Shown here: one piece after another, positions 2,854 through 23,061 of the stretch
How positions within the stretch are numbered: position 1 is the stretch's first letter
How the letters are laid out: the number at the start of each line of letters is the position of its first letter
Source of the DNA: a virus
DNA length: 23,061 nt
Strand: one strand, 5' to 3'
Virus record (IMG/VR): IMGVR_UViG_3300025108_000403
Coordinates: 1 to 23,061 of that record
Position numbers and translations under genes: made by a program
The notes under the pieces: generated by a model
What the model was told of the DNA's origin: nothing
Database searches by the model: none
The model's input: only the letters and a program-made list of their open reading frames with translations

Positions 2854-3717
2854 ATGAAAAAGATTGATACATTAGTTGAAGACCTTGAGTCCGTGATCTA
2901 CGGACAAGGCGGCTGGAACGGAACCATCGGTTCTATGCTAGGCAACAACATTGCGATGTCTGCCAACAAAAGATTTAGTAAGCCGCAAGAGCCTCGTGGG
3001 TATCTATCTCTTTCGTCTATTGGCACACCGTGTAAACGTAAGCTGTGGTACAAAGTAAACAAGCCAGGCTTTGGTGAACCACTCAGTGCTAACCTACTGC
3101 TCCGTTTCTTTTACGGAGATATGATCGAAGAACTTATACTCTCTATGGTGATAGCCTCTGGTCACAGCATGAAGGGTTCTCAGGATAGACTAAACGTTCA
3201 TGGCATACGTGGTCACCGTGACTGTGTGATTGATGGTATGACTGTTGATGTAAAGTCTTGTAGCCCATATGCTTTCAAGAAGTTTAAAGATGGTACACTA
3301 CGTGAGAACGATGCCTTTGGCTACATCAGTCAGCTTAGTTCTTATGTTTATGCAGGTAAGGATGACCCACTGGTTACAGACAAGACGCATGGTGCATTCC
3401 TTGCGATTGATAAAGTCAGTGGTGAGATATGCCTAGATGTGCATGACTTCACAGAAGACCTCAAGACTAAAGAGGAAGAGATGCTAGCAGCTAAAGAGTT
3501 AGTTGCAGGTGACATACCTACTGACCGTGTTCAACCTGTACCTGCAAGCAAGGCAAGTCCTAACACTAAGTTAGATAAGTCTTGTCAGTTCTGTGAGTAT
3601 AAGAAAGTTTGCTGGCCTAACCTACGTATGTTCAAGTACTCTTATGGCATTGAGTACCTAGTACATGTAGAGAAAGAACCCAAGGTAGAAGAGGTGTTCG
3701 ATGACACGGGCAGCTAA
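2854..3717 (+). CDS. PD-(D/E)XK exonuclease, Cas4/RecB-like with Fe-S cysteines
   Basis: Predicted DNA exonuclease of 287 aa that probably takes the place of the T7 gp6 exonuclease in recombination and host-DNA breakdown. Nuclease motifs in order are G88-D-M-I-E-E, GHRD at 120-123, D132-V-K134-S (the D-x-K catalytic motif), and Q160-x3-Y164 (the QxxxY motif of RecB-family nucleases). Four cysteines, C60 near the N-terminus and C244, C247 and C253 near the C-terminus, are arranged as in Cas4 and AddB enzymes, where they bind a 4Fe-4S cluster. A strong AAGGAG lies six bases before the ATG. The 3' end overlaps the next nuclease gene by 17 bases. Family call is strong; direction of digestion cannot be read from sequence. 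Confidence 0.85.
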   Translation: MKKIDTLVEDLESVIYGQGGWNGTIGSMLGNNIAMSANKRFSKPQEPRGYLSLSSIGTPCKRKLWYKVNKPGFGEPLSANLLLRFFYGDMIEELILSMVIASGHSMKGSQDRLNVHGIRGHRDCVIDGMTVDVKSCSPYAFKKFKDGTLRENDAFGYISQLSSYVYAGKDDPLVTDKTHGAFLAIDKVSGEICLDVHDFTEDLKTKEEEMLAAKELVAGDIPTDRVQPVPASKASPNTKLDKSCQFCEYKKVCWPNLRMFKYSYGIEYLVHVEKEPKVEEVFDDTGS

Positions 3718-4042
3718 AGCGAAGGGACGTGGTGGACAAAATGAAATCAGGGACAAGCTATTAGAAACCTTTCCTGAGTTCGAGCCTGATGACATAAAGT
3801 CCACAACTATGGGGGACACTGGAGAAGATATCCAGCTGTCCCCTGCAGCTAGAAAAAAGATGCCTATTACTATTGAAGTAAAGCGTAGGAAGTCTGGTAT
3901 GAAGATGGCCTATGATTATATTGAGCAAGCCAGTAAGCACGGTAAAGGAGAACCAGTTGTGTTCTTTCGTGCAGATAGAAAAGACTGGATCACAATGATT
4001 AGTGTAGATCATTACATGGAGTTGTTAAAGAAATGGAAATAA
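3701..4042 (+). CDS. Small PD-(D/E)XK endonuclease, Holliday-junction-resolvase-like
   Basis: A 113-aa predicted endonuclease in the place where T7-like phages often carry a resolvase. Visible motifs are E15 in the first helix, GED at 41-43, E59-V-K61 (the E-x-K core) and Q76 in the following helix, in the order expected for a PD-(D/E)XK fold. The basic N-terminus (KAKGRGGQ) may contact DNA. The gene starts inside the end of the exonuclease gene and itself overlaps the next gene by 10 bases, so the two nucleases are probably made together. Likely role is resolving branched replication intermediates before packaging; a VRR-NUC or nicking role is an alternative. Fold confidence is fair, substrate unknown. 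Confidence 0.65.
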   Translation: MTRAAKAKGRGGQNEIRDKLLETFPEFEPDDIKSTTMGDTGEDIQLSPAARKKMPITIEVKRRKSGMKMAYDYIEQASKHGKGEPVVFFRADRKDWITMISVDHYMELLKKWK

Positions 4043-4281
4043 AAATCTGGGGAGTTACGGAAGGTCCAATAGCTATTGAAGAAGTTTCTGAGTTAGAACT
4101 TGAGATGGCACCTGATGGATCTAAGTATTTTATGGTGTGTAGAACAGAGATAGATGGTGTGGTTGGTGAAGATAACTTTTGGTTCGAAGACTTCGATGAT
4201 GCTTATGAATGGAAGAAGCATTTTATGAAGAGCATTGACCCGATTGTAATTGACATGGATGGCACTAGTGCGTATAACTAG
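4033..4281 (+). CDS. Small acidic protein of unknown function
   Basis: An 82-aa protein I do not recognise. It is strongly acidic (ELELEMAPDG, EDNFWFEDFDDAYEW) with a predicted strand-rich N-terminal half and an aromatic-rich helix toward the C-terminus; no Cys motif, signal peptide or membrane segment is seen. It begins within the last codons of the endonuclease gene and is followed after 11 bases by another small acidic gene. Small acidic early proteins of phages often bind host enzymes or mimic DNA, but nothing here shows that specifically. Confidence 0.6.
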   Translation: MEIKIWGVTEGPIAIEEVSELELEMAPDGSKYFMVCRTEIDGVVGEDNFWFEDFDDAYEWKKHFMKSIDPIVIDMDGTSAYN

Positions 4282-4292
4282 GGGTCTTTCGA

Positions 4293-4454
4293 ATGAGGTT
4301 TGAGCTATCTATAAAAATTAAAGTAGACCCCGAGGCTAACTTTCTTGAGACCTTTGGGGATAACTCTGACGTAGTATCGGAACTAATCGAAGCCAGTCTA
4401 TACGACATAGACGATGTAATTGTGGAAGAATGTGAGGTAAAAAGTGTTGAATGA
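4293..4454 (+). CDS. Short acidic hypothetical protein (53 aa)
   Basis: A short gene filling the gap before mazG. ATG at 4293 follows AGGGG at about 4280-4284 with eight bases of spacing. The translation starts MRFELSIKIKVDPEAN and ends in ECEVKSVE; it alternates hydrophobic and charged residues at the start (a beta strand) and then has an acidic helix-like segment. Its 3' end overlaps the GTG start of mazG by 11 bases and contains that gene's ribosome binding site, which supports it being real. No family recognised. Confidence 0.55.
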   Translation: MRFELSIKIKVDPEANFLETFGDNSDVVSELIEASLYDIDDVIVEECEVKSVE

Positions 4455-4815
4455 TTCGGACCTAGAAGCTTGGGAGTATTACAACGAAGCTTTCAAAGAA
4501 CGTATGACTATGGATCAGTACCAAAGGGCAGCAGCTAAGACTGCTATCTACAACAGTACGCATAGTATATTATACCCCGCCCTTGGCCTAGCAGGTGAGG
4601 CAGGTGAAGTTGCAAACAAAGTTAAGAAGATGATTCGTGACAATAACTTTGATCGGCAGGGTATTGCTGCAGAGATCGGTGATGTGTTGTGGTACTTAGC
4701 TGCACTGTCCCGTGATCTTAACATTGACTTGCATGACATCGCTTTCGAAAACCTAGAGAAACTCTACGGTCGTAAAGCACGAGGTGCACTAAAAGGCTCA
4801 GGAGATAAACGATGA
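4444..4815 (+). CDS. mazG: MazG-like nucleoside triphosphate pyrophosphohydrolase
   Basis: A 123-aa MazG-type all-alpha NTP pyrophosphohydrolase that hydrolyses (d)NTPs to monophosphates. The Mg2+-binding signature EXXE...EXXD is present as E52-x2-E55 (in GLAGEAGEVANKVKK) and E77-x2-D80 (in EIGDVLWYLA). Length matches single-domain phage MazG. I take GTG at 4444 as start because GAGG lies six bases upstream; the first in-frame ATG (4504) would drop 20 residues with no better site. It ends in an ATGA overlap with the reductase, coupling the two. Phage MazG was proposed to lower host (p)ppGpp, but cyanophage enzymes prefer dGTP/dCTP, which fits a role in nucleotide recycling beside the reductase. 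Confidence 0.9.
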   Translation: MLNDSDLEAWEYYNEAFKERMTMDQYQRAAAKTAIYNSTHSILYPALGLAGEAGEVANKVKKMIRDNNFDRQGIAAEIGDVLWYLAALSRDLNIDLHDIAFENLEKLYGRKARGALKGSGDKR

Positions 4816-6719
4816 GTAATCAACTACCAACAGACTATCAATCTTTTATTCACAAGTCACGGTATGCAAAATACTTTGATGATAAAGGCCGTGAGAACTG
4901 GGATCAAACAGTTGAACGTTACATGGATAATGTTGTTGCCAAGGCTTTAACAGATGAATCGGGTTGGGATATTTACAATGATATCCAACAAGCTATCCTT
5001 GGCTTAGAGATCATGCCTTCTATGCGAGCTATGATGACAGCTGGCCCTGCTCTTGATCGTGATAATACTGCAGGTTACAACTGTTCATATCTCCCAGTAG
5101 ATGATCCTAAAAGCTTCGACGAAGCGATGTACATCCTCCTCTGTGGCACGGGGGTTGGCTTCTCTGTAGAACGGCAGTACATCAGCAAGCTCCCAGAAGT
5201 ACCACATCTGTTCGAGAGTGATACCACAGTCGTCGTGAAGGACAGTAAGGAAGGTTGGGCGAAAGCTTTCCGTCAAGTGTTAGCACTCCTATGGGCTGGT
5301 GAGATTCCTAAGTGGGATGTCTCTCGTGTACGTCCTGCAGGTGCAAGACTAAAAACGTTTGGTGGTAGAGCATCAGGCCCAGCACCTTTGGTTGAGTTGT
5401 TTAACTTTGCTGTGTCTACATTTAAGAATGCACAAGGTCGTAAGCTCTCAAGCATTGAGTGCCATGACCTGATGTGTTTCATCGGACAGATTGTTGTGGT
5501 TGGCGGTGTACGTCGATCAGCTATGATCTCTCTATCTAACCTAAGTGATGACCGTATGCGTCACGCTAAGTCTGGTCAGTGGTGGGAGACAGCAGCTCAC
5601 CGTGCACTAGCTAACAACTCTGTATCTTATACAGAAAAGCCTGATGTAGAAACATTCATGCGTGAGTGGACAGCTTTGGTTGAATCCAAGTCAGGAGAAC
5701 GAGGAGTATTCAATCGTGAAGCATCTAAGAAACAAGCTGCAAAATATGGTAGACGTGATAGTGATTACGAGTTTGGGACTAACCCTTGCAGTGAAATCAT
5801 TCTTCGTCCGTATCAGTTCTGCAACCTTACCGAGTGTGTCGTACGGGCTACAGACACTATCGACGATTTGGAAAGAAAGGTCCGTCTGGCAACAATTCTG
5901 GGAACTATCCAATCCACCTACACAAAATTTCCGTATCTGCGAAAGGTGTGGAGAGACAACACTGAAGCCGAACGACTGCTTGGTGTGTCACTCACGGGCA
6001 TAATGGATAACCCACTGCTGACTACAAAGAATAAAGGACTCAATGAAACTCTTGCGCACCTTCGTAAAGTGGCTGTTGATACTAATGCTGAGTTTGCTGA
6101 TAAACTTGGTATCCCTGTATCTGCTGCTATCAGCTGCGTTAAGCCAAGCGGCACTGTCTCTCAGCTTGTGGATTCAGCATCTGGTATCCATGCTCGCCAC
6201 TCACGGTTTTACGTTAGGACTGTACGAGGTGACAACAAAGACCCTCTTACTCAGTTCATGAAAGATCAAGGCATTCCCCATGAGCCATGTGTGTTCAAGG
6301 GTGATACCACTACAGTGTTTAGCTTCCCTCAGAAGTCACCTAACAAAGCTGTAACTCGTGATGATATGTCAGCTATCGAGCAGCTAGAAATGTGGCTGGC
6401 TTATCAACGTAATTGGTGTGAGCATAAACCATCGGTGACTATCTCAGTCCGTGACTCGGAGTGGCTAGACGTGGGTGCCTTTGTGTACAAACACTTTGAT
6501 GAGATGTCTGGTGTGTCCTTCTTACCACACTCTGATCACACCTATCAGCAAGCACCCTATCAGGACTGCAGTGAACGTGAGTATAAAGAACTTTCAAAGC
6601 TGATGCCAAAGTCTATTGACTGGTCCCAGCTTTCAGAGTATGAACAAGAGGACAACACTGTGGCAATGCAAACTATGGCTTGCTCTGGTGACTCATGCGA
6701 AATCGTAGACCTAGTGTAG
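4812..6719 (+). CDS. nrdJ: Adenosylcobalamin-dependent (class II) ribonucleotide reductase, monomeric type
   Basis: A 635-aa class II ribonucleotide reductase that makes deoxyribonucleotides using adenosylcobalamin. The sequence fits the monomeric Lactobacillus leichmannii RTPR type. C91 (AGYNCSYL) and C337 (YQFCNLTE) match the redox pair, N324-P-C326-S-E328 matches the catalytic loop with the thiyl cysteine, and the C-terminal C624-x4-C629 matches the swinging thiol pair that is re-reduced by thioredoxin or glutaredoxin. It is about 100 residues shorter than RTPR, as is common in phages. Start ATG with AGGAG upstream overlaps the mazG stop. Class II enzymes need no oxygen, but the cell must supply B12. 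A DUF1289 protein and a glutaredoxin follow in overlap, the latter a plausible reductant. Confidence 0.95.
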   Translation: MSNQLPTDYQSFIHKSRYAKYFDDKGRENWDQTVERYMDNVVAKALTDESGWDIYNDIQQAILGLEIMPSMRAMMTAGPALDRDNTAGYNCSYLPVDDPKSFDEAMYILLCGTGVGFSVERQYISKLPEVPHLFESDTTVVVKDSKEGWAKAFRQVLALLWAGEIPKWDVSRVRPAGARLKTFGGRASGPAPLVELFNFAVSTFKNAQGRKLSSIECHDLMCFIGQIVVVGGVRRSAMISLSNLSDDRMRHAKSGQWWETAAHRALANNSVSYTEKPDVETFMREWTALVESKSGERGVFNREASKKQAAKYGRRDSDYEFGTNPCSEIILRPYQFCNLTECVVRATDTIDDLERKVRLATILGTIQSTYTKFPYLRKVWRDNTEAERLLGVSLTGIMDNPLLTTKNKGLNETLAHLRKVAVDTNAEFADKLGIPVSAAISCVKPSGTVSQLVDSASGIHARHSRFYVRTVRGDNKDPLTQFMKDQGIPHEPCVFKGDTTTVFSFPQKSPNKAVTRDDMSAIEQLEMWLAYQRNWCEHKPSVTISVRDSEWLDVGAFVYKHFDEMSGVSFLPHSDHTYQQAPYQDCSEREYKELSKLMPKSIDWSQLSEYEQEDNTVAMQTMACSGDSCEIVDLV

Positions 6720-17033: not shown

Positions 17034-17288
17034 TTACTTACTCATTGTCATCCACACTGCACCAGCTATAAATGTCAGTACGGCGACAGTGACTAATTTT
17101 GTTATTGTTGACCAGATCGACTTACGAGTGTCACGCCAAGCTTCTATCAAGCTACGCATCTCTGTAATATCTTTATGTGCATCATCATCAAGTAGACCAA
17201 TAGAACGTAGGGCTTCTTTAGCTCCACGTCTAGCTGCACGATCCAGCATAGCTTCTAACTCATCTGGGGAAAGTTTTACTTCACTCAT
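17034..17288 (-). CDS. Small membrane protein with C-terminal TM segment (possible holin-like; DUF6127-like)
   Basis: An 84-aa protein. The N-terminal two thirds are a soluble, charged helix pair (ELEAMLDRAARRGAKEALRS, then IGLLDDDAHKDITEMRSLIEAWRDTRKS). The C-terminus is one hydrophobic span, ITKLVTVAVLTFIAGAVWMT, ending with a short basic tail. The GAKEAL...IGL.DD.A..DI.E.RSLIEAWR pattern resembles small proteins of alphaproteobacterial phages annotated as DUF6127; I hold that loosely. With the lysozyme two genes downstream, a holin or anchoring role is possible. Its cytoplasmic-helix then TM order with only one span would be unusual for a canonical holin. Confidence 0.6.
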   Translation of the reverse strand: MSEVKLSPDELEAMLDRAARRGAKEALRSIGLLDDDAHKDITEMRSLIEAWRDTRKSIWSTITKLVTVAVLTFIAGAVWMTMSK

Positions 17289-17322: not shown

Positions 17323-17868
17323 TTATGGCTTTGTAGGCCAGTCATCATCAGATAAGTTAGGCCAATTAGTATGTGAAGTAATATCACGTAAAGCCTGACG
17401 ATATGTAGTCATCTCAGCAGAGAGTGTCATATCTGATAGTGCTAAGTAATCTGTAGCAGCTAGTAGTTCGTTACGTTTAGCACGGTTTGTCTCAGCCGTA
17501 TCCGCATCCTGTTCTGCAATTTCTTCAGCAGTCAGATCAACGACAGTGCGTGTCAGCACCCAGTCATTGCCATAGATAGGTGTGCCGACTAGATCAGTGT
17601 TGACCTCATTTGTGATGGGATGAGTCGCATCTTCTTCAGTCATCAGGCGCACAACATTGCGTGTAGGTGTTGTCGCTGTTGTGACCTTCTGTGTCAGCGG
17701 GTCATAGTCTGGCATTGCTTCTGTTGTGACAGGGCGCATACCATATCTACGCATAATCTCTACTGGGATATTGCGTGGGAATGATACGTTTGGATTGTCA
17801 CGGCGTAGCTGGCCCGTTGAATACGGATACTTGGCTACTGCCCCGTTTGTTATCTTAACGTAAGACAT
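17323..17868 (-). CDS. Putative tail protein, tail assembly chaperone-like C-terminus
   Basis: A 181-aa protein. The N-terminus (MSYVKITNGAVAKYPYSTGQL) resembles the beta-hairpin start of phage tail proteins that mimic short fibre ends. The C-terminal 60 residues read RAKRNELLAATDYLALSDMT, then TYRQALRDIT and NLSDDDWPTKP. This is the pattern of the Phage_tail_APC / XkdW-like assembly chaperone domain: a helix with R..LL..TDY, YRQALRDI, and a terminal W-P motif. It lies just downstream of the fibre genes, where such fibre-assembly helpers are commonly found. Likely helps assemble or cap the propeller fibres; direct interaction is inference. Confidence 0.65.
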   Translation of the reverse strand: MSYVKITNGAVAKYPYSTGQLRRDNPNVSFPRNIPVEIMRRYGMRPVTTEAMPDYDPLTQKVTTATTPTRNVVRLMTEEDATHPITNEVNTDLVGTPIYGNDWVLTRTVVDLTAEEIAEQDADTAETNRAKRNELLAATDYLALSDMTLSAEMTTYRQALRDITSHTNWPNLSDDDWPTKP

Positions 17869-17886: not shown

Positions 17887-18921
17887 TTAGGCTAGGACTA
17901 TTGCACCAGCACTTAAGAGGTTAGTGCTATCAGAAAGCGCATCTAGTTCTACTAGGCTTGATGTGTCTGTTGTGTCAAAAGACTTTAAGTTACTGTTATA
18001 AGATACATAAAGCGTACTGGTTGCATCATCGTGTGCTGCATAGGCGTTGCTTGCCGTAATGTTTTGGTAGCTTATTTCCGTCATATTTGATGGATCACTT
18101 ACGTCTATCATTGTAATTGGGCCAGTGTTTGACGGGACAAACAAGACAGACCTAGTTAAGTCTATTGCAGGTGACCAACATTCAGATTGGCCGCTTGGAT
18201 TTATAGTGTCTAAAACGGACATGCTAGAGGGGCTTGTAATATCTACAGATGTAACGCCATCTTTTTTTGATACATATAGCTTACCATTAGCAAAATCAGG
18301 TACAGAGAAAGTTGCTTCATCTAGCGTTGTTGTATTTTGCAAGAACTGAAGCCCTGTTGGGCTTGATGCAGTGGATACATCTATTGAAATAACTCTGTCT
18401 GTGCTACGACTTAGCATGTATGCAGTATCTGTATCCGCATCAAATTCAACAGCCCTCAACTGCACAAAAGAGGCTGTATTGCGGTATGTTCCAACTACAG
18501 ACGGACTACTTAAATTTGATATATCAACCACGTTAAATTGATAGCGGTCTTCCGCTGTTACATAAGCGACTTGCTCAGTTGGATTAACCTTAACTCCACG
18601 ACAGTCATCAAGATTTGTGTTATCTTGAAGGCTTCCTGTAATGGACATATTTGCTGGGTCACTAATATCAACAGTAATAATTCTATTCTGCTTGCTTACT
18701 AAAACTGCGGCATTTCTCTCTGTGTCTAAATCTATTGCCACAACATCGTTTAGAGTTGTACCGTTATAAAGACTGCCTAGAACTGTTATATTTGATGGGT
18801 CAGTAATATCTAAGGCAGTAATCCTAGCAGACCCTTGAGTAACAACATATGCCCTTGTTTTGGGCGCAGCAGCACCCCCAGCACCACTACCCAAGCCCAT
18901 CATCATTGCTAAGTTGCTCAT
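17887..18921 (-). CDS. LVIVD-repeat seven-bladed beta-propeller tail protein
   Basis: A 344-aa protein with a Gly/Met-rich leader (MSNLAMMMGLGSGAGGAAAP) and then seven repeats of 40-50 residues. Each is marked by a strand of the type (A/V/I)DI(T/S)DPSN: ALDITDPSN, TVDISDPAN, VVDISNLSS, SIDVSTASS, SVDITSPSS, MIDVSDPSN, SFDTTDTSS. This is the LVIVD repeat pattern, predicted to fold as one seven-bladed propeller. No signal peptide. AAAGGAG precedes ATG 18921 after a short spacer, and the start overlaps the upstream fibre gene by ATGA, so it is co-translated with the fibres. Role is probably a tail fibre tip or receptor-binding accessory; ligand unknown. Confidence 0.75.
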   Translation of the reverse strand: MSNLAMMMGLGSGAGGAAAPKTRAYVVTQGSARITALDITDPSNITVLGSLYNGTTLNDVVAIDLDTERNAAVLVSKQNRIITVDISDPANMSITGSLQDNTNLDDCRGVKVNPTEQVAYVTAEDRYQFNVVDISNLSSPSVVGTYRNTASFVQLRAVEFDADTDTAYMLSRSTDRVISIDVSTASSPTGLQFLQNTTTLDEATFSVPDFANGKLYVSKKDGVTSVDITSPSSMSVLDTINPSGQSECWSPAIDLTRSVLFVPSNTGPITMIDVSDPSNMTEISYQNITASNAYAAHDDATSTLYVSYNSNLKSFDTTDTSSLVELDALSDSTNLLSAGAIVLA

Positions 18922-20078
18922 GCTACTGCGTCCCCTGCTTGCTTGGCGTAATACGTTGTGCCGCCATCGGTTGTTACGAATACATAAAGGTCTTTCTCAC
19001 CTGCCGCTGGTGCATCTGGTGCTGTTGCTTCACTCCACTTTACGCTGCTAGGCCATGCGACTGTGGCGGCTGCAGTAGAAGAAAATGTATATTGATAAAT
19101 AGTGTCACTACCACTGTCTGCATAATACAAATACTCACCATCTGAACCTGTTGCAATTCCTGTTGGTGTAGTACCCTGACTACTAATAGAAAATACCTGA
19201 CTTTGATAAGATGCTGTGGAAACATCCCAAGCAGTGGATAAAGAGTAACGATACAACCTATCACTCTGAGAACCAAGAAAAAACATCTCAGTACCATCAG
19301 AGTTAAACACAACTCCAATTTCTACTGAGTCCTGTAGACTTAGTTGATACTTTTTACTGGTGTTATGAGAAGCTGTTGATAAATCCCAAGCTGTAGTCAT
19401 ATCATACTGATAGACGTAACCTGATGTATTACCTGTCATATAAAATGAAGTACCATCAGGTTTAAAAAATACATTCATAGGAACAGCATCTTCACTAGAT
19501 AAATCGACAGTATTTAAACCTGATTGAGTTGCTACGCTACTTACATCCCAAGCAGTATTTAAGTCGTACTCATTTAGTCTGTCGGCTCCATAACCACCAG
19601 CATACATCTTAGTACCATCGTCGTTAAATGCCAACAAAGAAATGTTAGTGTCCAAAAGCTGTACACCACTTGTTGCGCCAGTCTTTGTAGACACATCCCA
19701 AGGTGTAGTTAAGGCATACTGGTAGACATAGTTATAGCCGCTGCCAACAAAAAACAATTTAGTACCGTCTGACTTAAAAGCTATACCTCTTGGACTAGGT
19801 TCTTGTGAAGCTACGTTCAAACTTATATTAGCATAACTTAATGCGTCCCAGTCGTACCCGTTAGTAACATCAGCACCCGTCACCTCTAACGCAAAGCTGC
19901 CAGCAGTGCCTGACGCTGGTGGGTTGCTGAAGGTAAACGTAGTGTTAGCCGATAGCGTCTTGGTGAAGTAGCTGCCCAGCGACATATCCACATCACTAGC
20001 TGCTACGGCTGTGCTATTCTGCAAGTACCGCTTGGCACTCAGTCCGTTCTTAATCTTAAATGCTTTATCATTCGCCAT
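18918..20078 (-). CDS. Tail fibre protein, one five-unit beta-propeller array
   Basis: A 386-aa protein. Layout: N-terminal tag MANDKAFKIKNGLSAKRYLQ; a small beta module (about 33-68, GSYFTKTLSANTTFTFSN...SFALEVTG) that also appears in the neighbouring fibres; a propeller array (about 75-335) of five units with the marker FKSDGTK / FNDDGTK / FKPDGTS / FNSDGTE / GSDGEYL at D104, D154, D208, D261 and D313; and a C-terminal cap (about 341-386, ATAPDAPAAGEKDLYVFVTTD). Units are joined by YQYxLxTAWDxSTA linkers. The protein is extracellular in the virion, probably receptor-binding. It begins 15 bases after the stop of the next fibre gene, with GGAG in the gap. Confidence 0.75.
   Translation of the reverse strand: MANDKAFKIKNGLSAKRYLQNSTAVAASDVDMSLGSYFTKTLSANTTFTFSNPPASGTAGSFALEVTGADVTNGYDWDALSYANISLNVASQEPSPRGIAFKSDGTKLFFVGSGYNYVYQYALTTPWDVSTKTGATSGVQLLDTNISLLAFNDDGTKMYAGGYGADRLNEYDLNTAWDVSSVATQSGLNTVDLSSEDAVPMNVFFKPDGTSFYMTGNTSGYVYQYDMTTAWDLSTASHNTSKKYQLSLQDSVEIGVVFNSDGTEMFFLGSQSDRLYRYSLSTAWDVSTASYQSQVFSISSQGTTPTGIATGSDGEYLYYADSGSDTIYQYTFSSTAAATVAWPSSVKWSEATAPDAPAAGEKDLYVFVTTDGGTTYYAKQAGDAVA
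19074..19856 (-). repeat. Beta-propeller repeat array A (five units)
   Basis: Five protein repeats with DG markers spaced 50, 54, 53 and 52 residues apart. At DNA level the linker appears on the + strand as near-copies of catcccaagcagt at about 150-160-base intervals (near 19225, 19384, 19544 and 19693). Confidence 0.8.
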
Positions 20079-20093
20079 GTTTCACATCTCCAC

Positions 20094-22031
20094 TTAGCTG
20101 AATGCGTCACCAGACTGAACGCCGATATATGTCGTACCGCCATCGTCTGTCGTAATTGTGTATATGTCTTTCTCACCAGCGTCAGGGCTATCAGGTGCAG
20201 TACCGCCAGCCCACTGTATGTCTGCATCCCATGTTATTGTGATGGCTGATGATGTAGAGTATTGATATACTGCATCTGTAGCATAACCTGTTATATACAT
20301 TTTAGTACCATCATCTTTAAAAAAGATACCTGTAGGAGTAGAGTCTTGAGAACTTACACTAAAAACTCTTACGTGAGATAAGGTACTAATATCCCAAGCT
20401 GTGCTTAAACTAAATTCGTTTACTTCATCTCCAGTTGTACCTATAACAAATACTTTAGTGCCATCTGTACTAAAATATAAATTCCATGGTGCGCTTTCAT
20501 AAGATGAAATACTGCTAGATTTTTGATTAAAAGATGCTGTTGATATATCCCATGCAGTTGTCATGTCAAACTCATTTATATCAGTACCTGACTGTCCCAT
20601 CATATAAAATTTAGTTCCGTCATATTTAAAGAAAATACCTGCTACTGCAGTGTCTTCCCCTGAACCTGCTGTTACATTATCAAAACTAGCTGTACTTACA
20701 TCCCATGCAGTGCTTAAAGAATATTGGTTTATATCATCTCCTGTAGCTCCACTAATATACATTTTAGTACCATCAGTTTTAAATGATATACCTGATGGAT
20801 TAGTCTCTTGTGAAGAAACACTAAACTGAGTTGCGTAACTAGCTGTAGAAATATCCCATGCAGTGCTTAATGAGTATTGATAAACACTATCTCCTCCAGA
20901 ACCTACCATATACATATCTAAACCATTATCTCTTATATATATTTGTCTTGGAGTAGCATCATTTGAACTAAAACTAAAAGTTTTGCTATCATAAGCTGCT
21001 GCACTTAAATCAAAACCTAAATTATTACCCGTCACCTCTAGCTGAAACGACTGCACATCCCCAGCATTGCTGAAGGTGTACTCTACGTCTGCGCTGGGCG
21101 TGTCTATGAAGTAGTTGCCAGTGGATAGATCAAAGCTGCCTGTCGTAACTGTGCTGCCAAAAGTGTATTGATATACATTGCCCAATCTTGATTGGTACAA
21201 TTTAGTGCCATCTGTCTTAAATACAAAATTATTTGTGTCTGTAATAGCAGACAAACCCCCTATACTGCTTACGTTGTCATAGCTTGCTGTTGATAAATCC
21301 CAAGCAGTGCTAAGTGAATACTGATATATATCATCAGCATTAACACCAAACATCTTTGTACCGTCAGAATTAAATTGAACATACCAACCATCATCAGGTG
21401 TTTGACCACTAACTGCAAACGACACACTGTCATATGATGCTGTAGAGATGTCCCATGCTGTAGACATTGTATATTGATACATTGGGCTGTCATTGTCGGA
21501 GACATAAATTTTTGTACCGTCTGAGCTAATAGTAAAATCATACGAAGTACCAGTCTGACTTCCGTAATATAAACTGTTTCCAGTAGCACTTGTAGTAGAT
21601 AAGTCCCATGCGGTGCTTAATGTGTGCTCATACACTCTGTCATCTTCATAAGCCTGTATATACAGCCGTGTGCCATCAGACTTAAATTGAAGGCCGTAAC
21701 CAAAGGAAATATTTCCGTTTGAATAACTTACACTATCATAACTTGCCGTTGAAATATCCCAAGCAGTAGACAACGAATACTGAAAAACATCACCCGCACC
21801 TGTAGAAGAAGCGGATGTAACGTACATTTTTGTACCGTCTGTTTTAAATGCTACACCAGCGGCATATGCTATCTCTGATGAAACGTCTGCTGACTTACTA
21901 TCGTAAGAAAGAGAGGAAATATTATAACTATCTACATAACTCCCCGCACTTGCAGCATCGCCCAGCGTGACCTTAGTAGCACCGCCAACCTCAACAGCAT
22001 TCTTTACGATGAAATCCTTGTCGTTAGCCAT
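20094..22031 (-). CDS. Tail fibre protein, two five-unit beta-propeller arrays
   Basis: A 645-aa protein, the largest complete fibre here. Order: N-terminal tag MANDKDFIVKNAVEVGG with VTLGDAASAGSYV; first array of five units (about 36-292; markers at 65, 119, 171, 223, 273); the small beta module (about 298-337, GNYFIDTPSADVEYTFSN...FQLEVTG); second array of five units (about 342-596; markers at 369, 420, 471, 523, 574); and the C-terminal cap (about 599-645, GGTAPDSPDAGEKDIYTITT). The first marker of the second array is degenerate (RDNGLDM). Cap and beta module match those of the 386-aa fibre, so the genes arose by duplication and module joining. TAATG overlap with the upstream fibre gene. 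Predicted receptor-binding fibre. Confidence 0.75.
   Translation of the reverse strand: MANDKDFIVKNAVEVGGATKVTLGDAASAGSYVDSYNISSLSYDSKSADVSSEIAYAAGVAFKTDGTKMYVTSASSTGAGDVFQYSLSTAWDISTASYDSVSYSNGNISFGYGLQFKSDGTRLYIQAYEDDRVYEHTLSTAWDLSTTSATGNSLYYGSQTGTSYDFTISSDGTKIYVSDNDSPMYQYTMSTAWDISTASYDSVSFAVSGQTPDDGWYVQFNSDGTKMFGVNADDIYQYSLSTAWDLSTASYDNVSSIGGLSAITDTNNFVFKTDGTKLYQSRLGNVYQYTFGSTVTTGSFDLSTGNYFIDTPSADVEYTFSNAGDVQSFQLEVTGNNLGFDLSAAAYDSKTFSFSSNDATPRQIYIRDNGLDMYMVGSGGDSVYQYSLSTAWDISTASYATQFSVSSQETNPSGISFKTDGTKMYISGATGDDINQYSLSTAWDVSTASFDNVTAGSGEDTAVAGIFFKYDGTKFYMMGQSGTDINEFDMTTAWDISTASFNQKSSSISSYESAPWNLYFSTDGTKVFVIGTTGDEVNEFSLSTAWDISTLSHVRVFSVSSQDSTPTGIFFKDDGTKMYITGYATDAVYQYSTSSAITITWDADIQWAGGTAPDSPDAGEKDIYTITTDDGGTTYIGVQSGDAFS
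20244..21008 (-). repeat. Beta-propeller repeat array C (five units)
   Basis: Second array of the 645-aa fibre: markers spaced 51, 51, 52 and 51 residues, four STAWD-type linkers, and a terminal half-unit ending YQYSTSS. Confidence 0.8.
21156..21926 (-). repeat. Beta-propeller repeat array B (five units)
   Basis: First array of the 645-aa fibre: markers spaced 54, 52, 52 and 50 residues, four STAWD linkers, terminal unit ending YQYTFGS. Confidence 0.8.
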
Positions 22032-23061
22032 TATGCCGCCCCATCTATTGCTATTGCTGCTTGGTAAGTCGTGCCACCGTCACGGGTGCTGAATGTTAGT
22101 ACATCTGTTTCACCTATGGCTGGACTATCTGGTGCAGTGCCACCGCCAAACTGTAGGGTGCTATCGTAGGTGACTGTGTAGGCTGATGATGTAGAGTATT
22201 GATAAATAGTATCATTAGTGCTACCTGTTACATACATTTTAGTACCATCATCTTTAAAGACTGCAACATAAGGGTTAGTCTCTTGACTTGATACATCAAA
22301 TTCTTGTACATAAGAAAGAGTAGAAACATCCCAAGCAGTACTTAAGCTATACTCTGTTACGACATCTGTGGAGTTATTAGGAATAAAAACTTTAAGTCCA
22401 TCTGAAGTGAAAAATGGTTGTCTTGGACTGGCAACTATAGACGGTGAATATTGATTAAATGTAGCTGTAGATAAGTCCCAAGCCGTACTTAAGTTGTACT
22501 CTACAAGTTTATCATTTTCATCACCTGAGAAATACATCTTAGTACCATCTGGCTTAAAGAATAGACCAAAAGGAATATTATCTACAGTAGAAACATCTAA
22601 GGTATGTGTAATGCTTCCTGTAGATATATTCCAAGCAGTAGTTAGAGTATGTTCATATATGTTATCACCACCGTATCCAGCAATATACATTTTAGTGCCA
22701 TCATCCTTAAAGAAAATACCTGAAGGTATAGTCTCGGCTAGAGCAAGAACTCTTACATAAGTTAGTGTACTTAAATCCCAAGCAGTGCTTAATGTATACT
22801 GATTTACTTCATCTGCACTAGCCCCAACCATAAACATTTGGGTTCCATCATCAGTAAAATATAAACCCATCGGACTGTTATTCTGACTAGCAAGACTTGT
22901 ACTCACACTATCATAAGCCGCACTGCTTAGGTCATACCCATTTACCGCCCCATCCAACAACAACGTAGCCTGACTAACAGTCCCACTTGCCGCAGGGTTG
23001 CTTAGGCCAACCTGAATGTCAGACGTTGGGGTGATCTCAAAGACTGAACCTGTGGATAGGT
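22031..23061 (-). CDS. Tail fibre protein with five-unit beta-propeller array (5' end outside window)
   Basis: The C-terminal part of a third fibre. The reading frame is open to the right edge: codons before the first possible internal start (a TTG at 22963) read STGSVFEITPTSDIQVGLSN then PAASGTVSQATLLL, which is the same small beta module seen in the other two fibres, so the gene begins outside the window. After it come five propeller units (markers DDGTQ, DDGTK, PDGTK, SDGLK, DDGTK, spaced 49, 51, 49 and 51 residues) and the cap (GGGTAPDSPAIGETDVLTFST). The stop overlaps the start of the next fibre by one base. The N-terminal tag and any further array are unknown. Confidence 0.75.
   Translation of the reverse strand, partial: LSTGSVFEITPTSDIQVGLSNPAASGTVSQATLLLDGAVNGYDLSSAAYDSVSTSLASQNNSPMGLYFTDDGTQMFMVGASADEVNQYTLSTAWDLSTLTYVRVLALAETIPSGIFFKDDGTKMYIAGYGGDNIYEHTLTTAWNISTGSITHTLDVSTVDNIPFGLFFKPDGTKMYFSGDENDKLVEYNLSTAWDLSTATFNQYSPSIVASPRQPFFTSDGLKVFIPNNSTDVVTEYSLSTAWDVSTLSYVQEFDVSSQETNPYVAVFKDDGTKMYVTGSTNDTIYQYSTSSAYTVTYDSTLQFGGGTAPDSPAIGETDVLTFSTRDGGTTYQAAIAIDGAA
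22187..22936 (-). repeat. Beta-propeller repeat array D (five units)
   Basis: Array of the partial fibre. Four STAWD/TTAWN linkers are visible on the + strand as near-copies of tcccaagcagt near 22327, 22474, 22627 and 22775, plus a terminal unit ending YQYSTSS. Confidence 0.8.

What the first reader, a model, noticed from the sequence alone, without database searches (positions are those of the whole stretch)
19074..22936. Quantised five-unit propeller arrays in three adjacent tail-fibre genes
Seen: four separate arrays, each with exactly five repeats of about 51 residues, defined by an F-K-x-DGTKMY marker and a YQYSLSTAWDISTASY linker, each ending with a shortened unit (YQYSTSS or similar). 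Each array follows or precedes the same small beta module, and every gene ends with the same cap. Known: YVTN/NHL-like SPDG...LYV motifs mark propeller blades. Inference: each array is one closed five-bladed propeller, and the fibre is a string of such discs on a shared scaffold. Five-bladed propellers are rare compared with six to eight blades. The fixed count suggests selection for ring closure despite highly recombinogenic repeats. This looks like a modular receptor-binding system.
Basis: partly seen in the sequence, partly recalled or inferred. Interest (0 to 1): 0.7.

Follow-up and report, generated by a model that had tools for sequence, protein, structure and literature searches.

The report
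Phage fibre propellers counted in fives
Marine phages build their tail fibres from closed ring-shaped protein modules that always hold exactly five repeats, are moved about as whole rings and vary mostly on one face, which looks like a swappable grip for host surfaces.

Summary
The repeats are real: four arrays of five ~51-residue units, in three adjacent minus-strand genes of a Roseobacter phage CRP-9-type contig. A near-identical relative shows that the cut-off first gene carries a fifth array. Each unit is a four-stranded blade. A single array folds with high confidence (pLDDT 95, pTM 0.92, 20 strands = 5x4) and matches beta-propellers.

Closure is supported without AlphaFold: across 350 rings the last strand of blade 5 covaries with the first strand of blade 1 under the same residue rule that links neighbouring blades, the signature of a "Velcro" closure.

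Among 369 complete non-redundant arrays, 340 score as 5, 10 or 15 units. The exceptions I read resolve to five, are broken, or are too divergent or unrelated; none is a clear counter-example. All ten named phage records give multiples of five, although blades can be 84% alike.

The "beta module" and "cap" are two halves of one tail-fibre domain split by the inserted ring; natural empty sites exist. Rings move between slots. Substitutions concentrate on one face, suggesting receptor binding (inferred, not shown).

Five-bladed propellers in phage receptor-binding proteins were known (phi11 Gp45, PRD1 P2). The family, strict five-count and insertion architecture appear undescribed.

The parts
22031..23059 (-). 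Fibre gene gA (5' end cut by contig end; 342 aa seen). Half-module, ring, cap. Intact relative L004 has 640 aa with two rings.
   Evidence: ORF; full-length relative
22184..22924 (-). Ring in gA: five blades
22937..23059 (-). N-terminal half of split tail-fibre module in gA
22034..22180 (-). C-terminal half (cap) of the module in gA
20094..22031 (-). Fibre gene gB, 645 aa, two rings
21927..22031 (-). Conserved N-terminal tag MANDKDFIVKNAVEVGG... of gB, shared by the paralogous fibre genes
   Evidence: alignment; coordinates
21153..21914 (-). Ring 1 of gB (in front of the module): five blades
21015..21137 (-). N-terminal half of split tail-fibre module in gB
   Evidence: natural empty sites L049, L030
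20247..21002 (-). Ring 2 of gB, inserted in the module: five blades, modelled at pLDDT 95, pTM 0.92
20097..20243 (-). C-terminal half (cap) of the module in gB
18918..20078 (-). Fibre gene gC, 386 aa, one ring inserted in the module
19857..19994 (-). N-terminal half of split tail-fibre module in gC (phrog_9017 when joined to the cap)
19077..19844 (-). Ring in gC: five blades
18921..19067 (-). C-terminal half (cap) of the module in gC; matches phrog_9017 tail fiber protein
17887..18921 (-). Adjacent LVIVD-repeat propeller-like protein, 344 aa (a different propeller family in the same cluster)
   Evidence: Pfam PF08309 E 1.3e-12; TIGR04312 below cut-off
17323..17868 (-). Phage_tail_APC / tail fibre assembly protein, context marking the cluster as tail fibres
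   Evidence: PF16778 E 2.4e-11; PHROG tail fiber assembly

Best explanation
Each array is one closed five-bladed beta-propeller. Each ~51-residue unit supplies strand D of one blade and strands A, B and C of the next. The first strand of the array pairs with the last strand of unit 5 and locks the ring (Velcro closure), so five is the smallest complete repeat of the design and longer arrays are two or three rings in a row (strongly supported). The rings are carried by paralogous tail-fibre proteins as whole cassettes, in two slots: in front of a small tail-fibre domain, or inserted into a loop of that domain, which splits it into the 'beta module' and the 'cap' (shown by sequence). The conserved face (AB and CD loops) keeps the fold; the opposite face (DA and BC loops) changes fastest and most likely binds host-surface receptors, probably glycans (inferred). 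Blades duplicate and exchange among positions 1-4, but chains with four or six blades fail to close and are removed by selection (inferred).
For: Units and counts. Fold: whole gB model, array 2 mostly pLDDT 90 or above, four strands per unit; single ring pLDDT 95, pTM 0.92, 20 strands; listed PDB fold matches are propellers; profile matches the YVTN propeller 1l0q at E 5e-15. Closure: the 5-to-1 coupling map correlates 0.58 with that of adjacent blades (adjacent pairs 0.52-0.64), against 0.36-0.40 for blade 5 to 2, 3 or 4. At columns 42/7 the rule E-Q, Q-V/K/I is obeyed in 97% of closing pairs with 0 Q-Q, Fisher p 5e-9, while 5-to-2 shows nothing (p 1) in 179 rings under 55% alike. Count: 298 arrays of 5, 35 of 10, 7 of 15 out of 369, with spacings often irregular between units 5|6 and 10|11. 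Ten named phage records: CRP-9, CRP-13, CRP-2 = 5+5+5; CRP-738 = 5+5; ICBM2, S-SKS1, Molly_1, ctPCi537, S-SCSM2R, LR756508 = 5, after setting aside near-zero-score extra hits. Insertion: with the ring removed, gC matches phrog_9017 contiguously (54.8 bits, positions 55-149) against cap only when intact (36.9 bits, 107-149); contiguous relatives L018, L049, L030, L014 align to the split modules. Whole-ring transfer: rings 91% alike in different slots, L164 vs L120; 86% alike in different genes, L016 vs L118. Face bias: substitution rates DA 0.35 and BC 0.36 vs AB 0.09 and CD 0.16.
Against: Model coordinates could not be inspected, so closure rests on strand assignment, confidence and covariation. 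PDB matches have only TM 0.50-0.57, which I attribute to the six or seven blades of the listed propellers; no five-bladed structure is among the 50 listed. The closing pair has few E residues, so its statistic leans on the absence of Q-Q. Related sequences inflate covariation; it persists at the 55% redundancy cut. The test in contiguous arrays (blade 5 with blade 1 versus blade 6) was uninformative because of gaps. Receptor binding has no direct evidence. Most relatives are metagenome assemblies.
Confidence: 0.8

Rival explanations
1. The arrays are open beta-solenoids or stacks of four-stranded sheets and the count of five is inherited from a common ancestor rather than needed for closure.
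For: Whole rings are copied as cassettes, so a count could be inherited passively. Model coordinates were not inspected.
Against: Blade 5 covaries with blade 1, which are not neighbours in the chain, and not with blade 2. Fold matches are propellers. Ten- and fifteen-unit arrays recur without confirmed 6-9 or 11-14. Blades 1-4 have mixed position ancestry, so blades are exchanged while the count stays.
Confidence: 0.05
2. The rings are structural spacers or virion decorations that stiffen or lengthen the fibre, not receptor-binding discs.
For: Rings occur in several paralogues per genome and in different places, including inside a gene annotated as baseplate wedge protein 53 in S-SCSM2R and as a stand-alone gene beside tail genes in Molly_1.
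Against: Fast substitution on one face only, cassette exchange between fibre genes, adjacent tail fibre assembly gene, and precedent of five-bladed propellers in phage receptor-binding proteins (PMC4901313).
Confidence: 0.2
3. The rings are enzymes (for example glycan-cleaving), since many propellers of this size are glycosidases or lactonases.
For: Weak Pfam matches to SGL and Lactonase families; many five-bladed propellers are glycosidases (general knowledge).
Against: The listed families match only short stretches; no invariant set of acidic residues outside the structural DGT and linker motifs was seen in the alignment (by eye); blades are near-interchangeable, unlike an enzyme site placed on particular blades.
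Confidence: 0.08
4. The fixed count is an artefact of assembly or of the repeat finder.
For: Repeat arrays can be collapsed by short-read assembly; most relatives are metagenomic.
Against: Named phage genomes recorded as complete give the same counts; blades are median 48% alike, so most are not collapsible; collapse would give variable counts; exceptions that I read resolve to five.
Confidence: 0.02

Closest known systems
Staphylococcus phage phi11 receptor-binding protein Gp45 (PMC4901313)
   Same: Five-bladed propeller in a phage receptor-binding protein, four strands per blade, N-terminal strand completes the last blade (read).
   Different: phi11 has one propeller per chain on a helical stem; the profile search listed no phage chain in the PDB. 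Here the blades are clear tandem repeats, with one to three or more rings per chain inserted in or placed before another tail-fibre domain.
PRD1 P2 receptor-binding protein
   Same: Described as a distorted five-bladed propeller head of a receptor-binding protein (PMC4901313).
   Different: Not compared directly here; single head in a tectivirus, not listed by the profile search.
YVTN-family propeller of an archaeal S-layer protein (PDB 1l0q)
   Same: Closest solved relative by profile, E 5e-15; same PDGT-K-x-Y-V type motif.
   Different: Matched over about 206 residues of a 391-residue chain. YVTN propellers are seven-bladed with shorter blades (general knowledge); here 51-residue units in rings of five.
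Highly repetitive propellers surveyed by Pereira and Lupas (PMC9218822)
   Same: Tandem blades of high mutual similarity that look recently amplified.
   Different: That survey found a continuum of blade numbers around preferred values and notes that amplification has no counting system. Here the count is almost strictly 5, 10 or 15.
PHROG 9017 / 7760 / 3904 tail fiber proteins
   Same: The split module plus cap belongs to this tail-fibre domain.
   Different: In the window the domain is interrupted by a whole propeller.

Membership tests
Beta-propeller fold | Tandem four-stranded blades | tested here: met
   20 strands in a 267-residue ring, 5 x 4; same pattern in the whole protein
Beta-propeller fold | Closed ring, first and last blades joined | tested here: met
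   Covariation of blade 5 with blade 1 and N-terminal strand assigned as paired; coordinates not inspected
Beta-propeller fold | Structural similarity to solved propellers | tested here: met
   Matches listed by Foldseek are propellers, E about 1e-11 to 2e-9, TM 0.43-0.57, limited by different blade numbers
Five-bladed propeller | Five blades per ring | tested here: met
   Five units in each window array and 5, 10 or 15 in relatives
YVTN / 7-bladed lactonase families | Profile match at curated cut-off over the full domain with seven blades | tested here: not met
   SGL and Lactonase pass cut-off in some members but over short stretches; the rings have five blades
phi11-type five-bladed receptor-binding protein | Sequence homology to phi11 Gp45 | tested here: not met
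   No phage receptor-binding chain among the four profile matches in the PDB
phi11-type five-bladed receptor-binding protein | Binding to a host surface receptor | not testable with these tools
   Needs binding assays
Phage tail fibre proteins | Tail-fibre domain homology | tested here: met
   phrog_9017 E 2.6e-14 for the rejoined module
Phage tail fibre proteins | Location in the tail gene cluster with assembly chaperone | tested here: met
   PF16778 and PHROG tail fiber assembly next to the genes; same arrangement in ICBM2
Phage tail fibre proteins | Trimeric assembly on the virion | not testable with these tools
   Needs structure or virion proteomics

The most novel reading that the evidence does not exclude
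A widespread family of phage propellers behaves as a quantised cassette. Single blades duplicate and recombine freely, yet only multiples of five survive, and whole rings are inserted, lost and swapped between slots of fibre scaffolds. It would be a natural system in which ring closure enforces an exact repeat count on a recombining locus that generates receptor diversity.
Probability: 0.55. Interest if true: 0.65.

Novelty: new variant of a known kind. Interest (0 to 1): 0.5.

Why it matters
It gives a large natural data set on how closure of a toroidal protein limits the number of tandem repeats; the published survey of repetitive propellers found a continuum instead. It also supplies a likely host-recognition module for abundant marine phages whose propeller genes are annotated as hypothetical proteins, a pairing rule that predicts ring closure from sequence, and a natural example of whole-ring insertion into a fibre domain that could be used as a modular binding scaffold.

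Tried and rejected
Single-sequence search of the PDB found nothing; a profile was needed. A first pass with a loose threshold gave arrays of 6; the extra hit was the cap motif DGGTTY or a hit near 0 bits. Arrays scored as 1-4, 6, 8 or 16 were read by eye: L148, L069/L295, L048, L166, L178, L346, L352, L345, L357 and L321 look like five with a divergent missed blade; L149 (2+3) and L035 (3+2) are frameshifted; L083/L302 is broken in several frames; L066 is a cut 5+5; L110 is a very divergent array of about 20; L113, L327, L328, L329 look like other, irregular propellers. Reading by eye is less rigorous than the automatic count. Testing closure inside contiguous 10-unit arrays was uninformative because the relevant columns are gapped. 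No relatives on plasmids at that sensitivity; only two hits in prokaryote genomes, both in one MAG. No paper in the library holds the signature peptides. The alternative that the fixed count only reflects vertical inheritance was weighed; position-mixed blade ancestry argues against it but does not fully exclude ring-level copying.

Full report
Observation. The window is a 23,061-base IMG/VR virus contig. Three adjacent minus-strand genes at its right end (gA 22031-23059, gB 20094-22031, gC 18918-20078) hold four arrays of five units each, 48 to 55 residues per unit. Array coordinates are 22184-22924, 21153-21914, 20247-21002 and 19077-19844. gA is cut by the contig end. Contig L004, whose best segment against gB is 100% identical, has an intact gA-type gene of 640 aa with 5+5 units, so the locus probably carries five arrays.

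What phage this is. Left-hand genes match DnaB-like helicase, family A DNA polymerase, MazG and B12-dependent ribonucleotide reductase; right-hand genes include an endolysin and a tail fibre assembly protein. The 1148-aa protein matches only three Roseobacter phages, CRP-9, CRP-207 and CRP-603. The 1078-aa protein is 53% identical to CRP-9 gp40 over 780 aligned positions, and the small DUF6127 protein is 98% identical to CRP-9 gp41. The DNA polymerase is closest to Roseobacter phage CRP-6, 55%. Published work describes CRP-9 as a mosaic of cobavirus-type replication and HMO-2011-type morphogenesis genes (PMC8528129), which fits. A Rhodobacteraceae host is therefore likely (inference).

Fold. 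AlphaFold2 on the 645-aa protein with 26 sequences gives mean pLDDT 81, with array 2 mostly around or above 90 and four strands per unit. A single ring (gB residues 336-602) with 80 natural rings gives pLDDT 95, pTM 0.92 and 20 strands. The listed Foldseek matches in the PDB are propellers; TM-scores are mostly 0.50-0.57, which I attribute to the six or seven blades of the listed targets, and the closest in size are the six-bladed Pizza6 designs. By sequence profile the nearest solved structure is the YVTN propeller 1l0q, E 5e-15.

Closure. In the model the first strand of the ring (residues 11-18) is assigned as a strand. In propeller topology it is the outer strand D and its only free partner would be the last strand of unit 5 (inference). 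The independent test is covariation over 350 rings (322 after removing near-duplicates). Maps of coupling between blades i and i+1 are similar to one another, and the map between blade 5 and blade 1 correlates with them at 0.575, within the adjacent range of 0.52-0.64; blade 5 with 2, 3 or 4 gives 0.37, 0.40 and 0.36. Some other non-adjacent pairs reach 0.54, so the contrast is clearest for blade 5. The strongest contact-like pair is column 42 (strand C) with column 7 (strand D of the next unit): E goes with Q, and Q with V, K or I. In 179 rings less than 55% alike the closing pair obeys the rule in 97% of cases, with 111 Q-V/K/I, 7 E-Q, 4 E-V/K/I and no Q-Q (Fisher p 5e-9), while blade 5 against blade 2 shows 23 Q-Q and no association (p 1). 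This is what a Velcro closure predicts. Caveats: relatedness inflates such counts, and E is rare at the closing position.

Count. A blade profile was run on six-frame translations of 368 loci. Of 369 complete, non-redundant arrays, 298 have five units, 35 have ten and 7 have fifteen; 29 scored otherwise. The exceptions I read have a divergent missed blade, a false hit or a frameshift, or are very divergent or unrelated; one broken contig (L083/L302) cannot be assigned. In arrays of 10 and 15 the spacing is often irregular exactly between units 5|6 and 10|11 (38-39 or 54 residues), while internal spacing is mostly 51-52. Ten named phage records, from Roseobacter-group, Maribacter and Synechococcus hosts and from uncultured phages, give 5 or multiples of 5 once extra hits of about zero score in CRP-13 and CRP-738 are set aside. 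Blades within a ring are 48% identical in the median and up to 84% on average; 50 rings contain a pair at 80% or more. Blades 1 to 4 find their nearest relatives in other rings at mixed positions, whereas blade 5 most often finds other fifth blades. So blades have been exchanged while the number has stayed. Pereira and Lupas describe a continuum of blade numbers in highly repetitive propellers and point out that amplification has no counting system (PMC9218822); this family differs.

Scaffold. The 'beta module' (DLSTGxYF...FSNPPASGT...LEVTG) and the 'cap' (VTWPSSVKW...DGGTTY) are the two halves of one tail-fibre domain. With the ring removed, gC matches phrog_9017 continuously (profile 55-149, 54.8 bits); intact gC matches only with the cap (107-149, 36.9 bits). 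Relatives L018, L014, L049 and L030 carry the same domain uninterrupted, with their ring in front of it instead, and align with the split forms. L049 and L030 start and end like gB and lack array 2, so they are natural empty sites. Rings thus occupy two slots: before the domain or inside it. Rings 91% alike occur in different slots (L164, L120) and rings 83-86% alike in different genes (L016, L118, L131).

Function. The genes sit beside a tail fibre assembly gene, as in Lentibacter phage ICBM2, where hypothetical-protein genes, one of them the ring gene, alternate with tail assembly chaperone genes. Between close rings, substitutions are concentrated in the DA and BC loops (0.35, 0.36) against the AB and CD loops (0.09, 0.16). 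In propellers DA and BC lie on the same face, which usually carries the ligand site (general knowledge). I infer that this face binds host-surface receptors. Precedents are phi11 Gp45 and PRD1 P2, five-bladed propellers in phage receptor-binding proteins (PMC4901313). No binding data exist for this family here.

Verdict. What appears new is the family itself (no Pfam, PHROG or NCBIfam model describes it as a whole; signature peptides absent from the paper library), the near-exact count of five with a covariation signature of closure, and the insertion architecture. Five-bladed propellers on phage adhesion devices were known, so I file it as a new variant of a known kind.

Noticed in passing
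17887-18921 (-): A different propeller-like gene (LVIVD repeats, PF08309) directly follows the five-blade genes; so two propeller families share one fibre cluster.
   Followed up: partly
17034-17288 (-): DUF6127 protein is 98% identical to Roseobacter phage CRP-9 gp41 while the neighbouring 1078-aa protein is only 53% identical to CRP-9 gp40, suggesting recent exchange beside the fibre cluster.
   Followed up: partly
L097, L109, L225, L232, L234, L241, L246 (15 units); L160 and others (10 units): Contiguous arrays without spacer come as 10 or 15 units, often with irregular spacing at the 5|6 and 10|11 borders.
   Followed up: yes
L110:2555-5983: Very divergent protein with about 20 consecutive blade-like units; could be four rings, not resolved.
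   Followed up: partly
L327, L328, L329, L113: Long phage proteins with irregular, longer blade-like units; probably other propellers outside this family.
   Followed up: partly
L190, L191: The only prokaryote-genome hits are two short contigs of one marine Euryarchaeota MAG (NP73), likely a binned phage.
   Followed up: no
L339 (S-SCSM2R, 3026-5368): A five-blade ring lies inside a gene annotated as baseplate wedge protein 53 in a Synechococcus phage, so rings may also sit on baseplate proteins.
   Followed up: no
L336 (Molly_1, 4911-5741): A stand-alone five-blade protein of 276 aa between two tail protein genes in a Maribacter phage.
   Followed up: no
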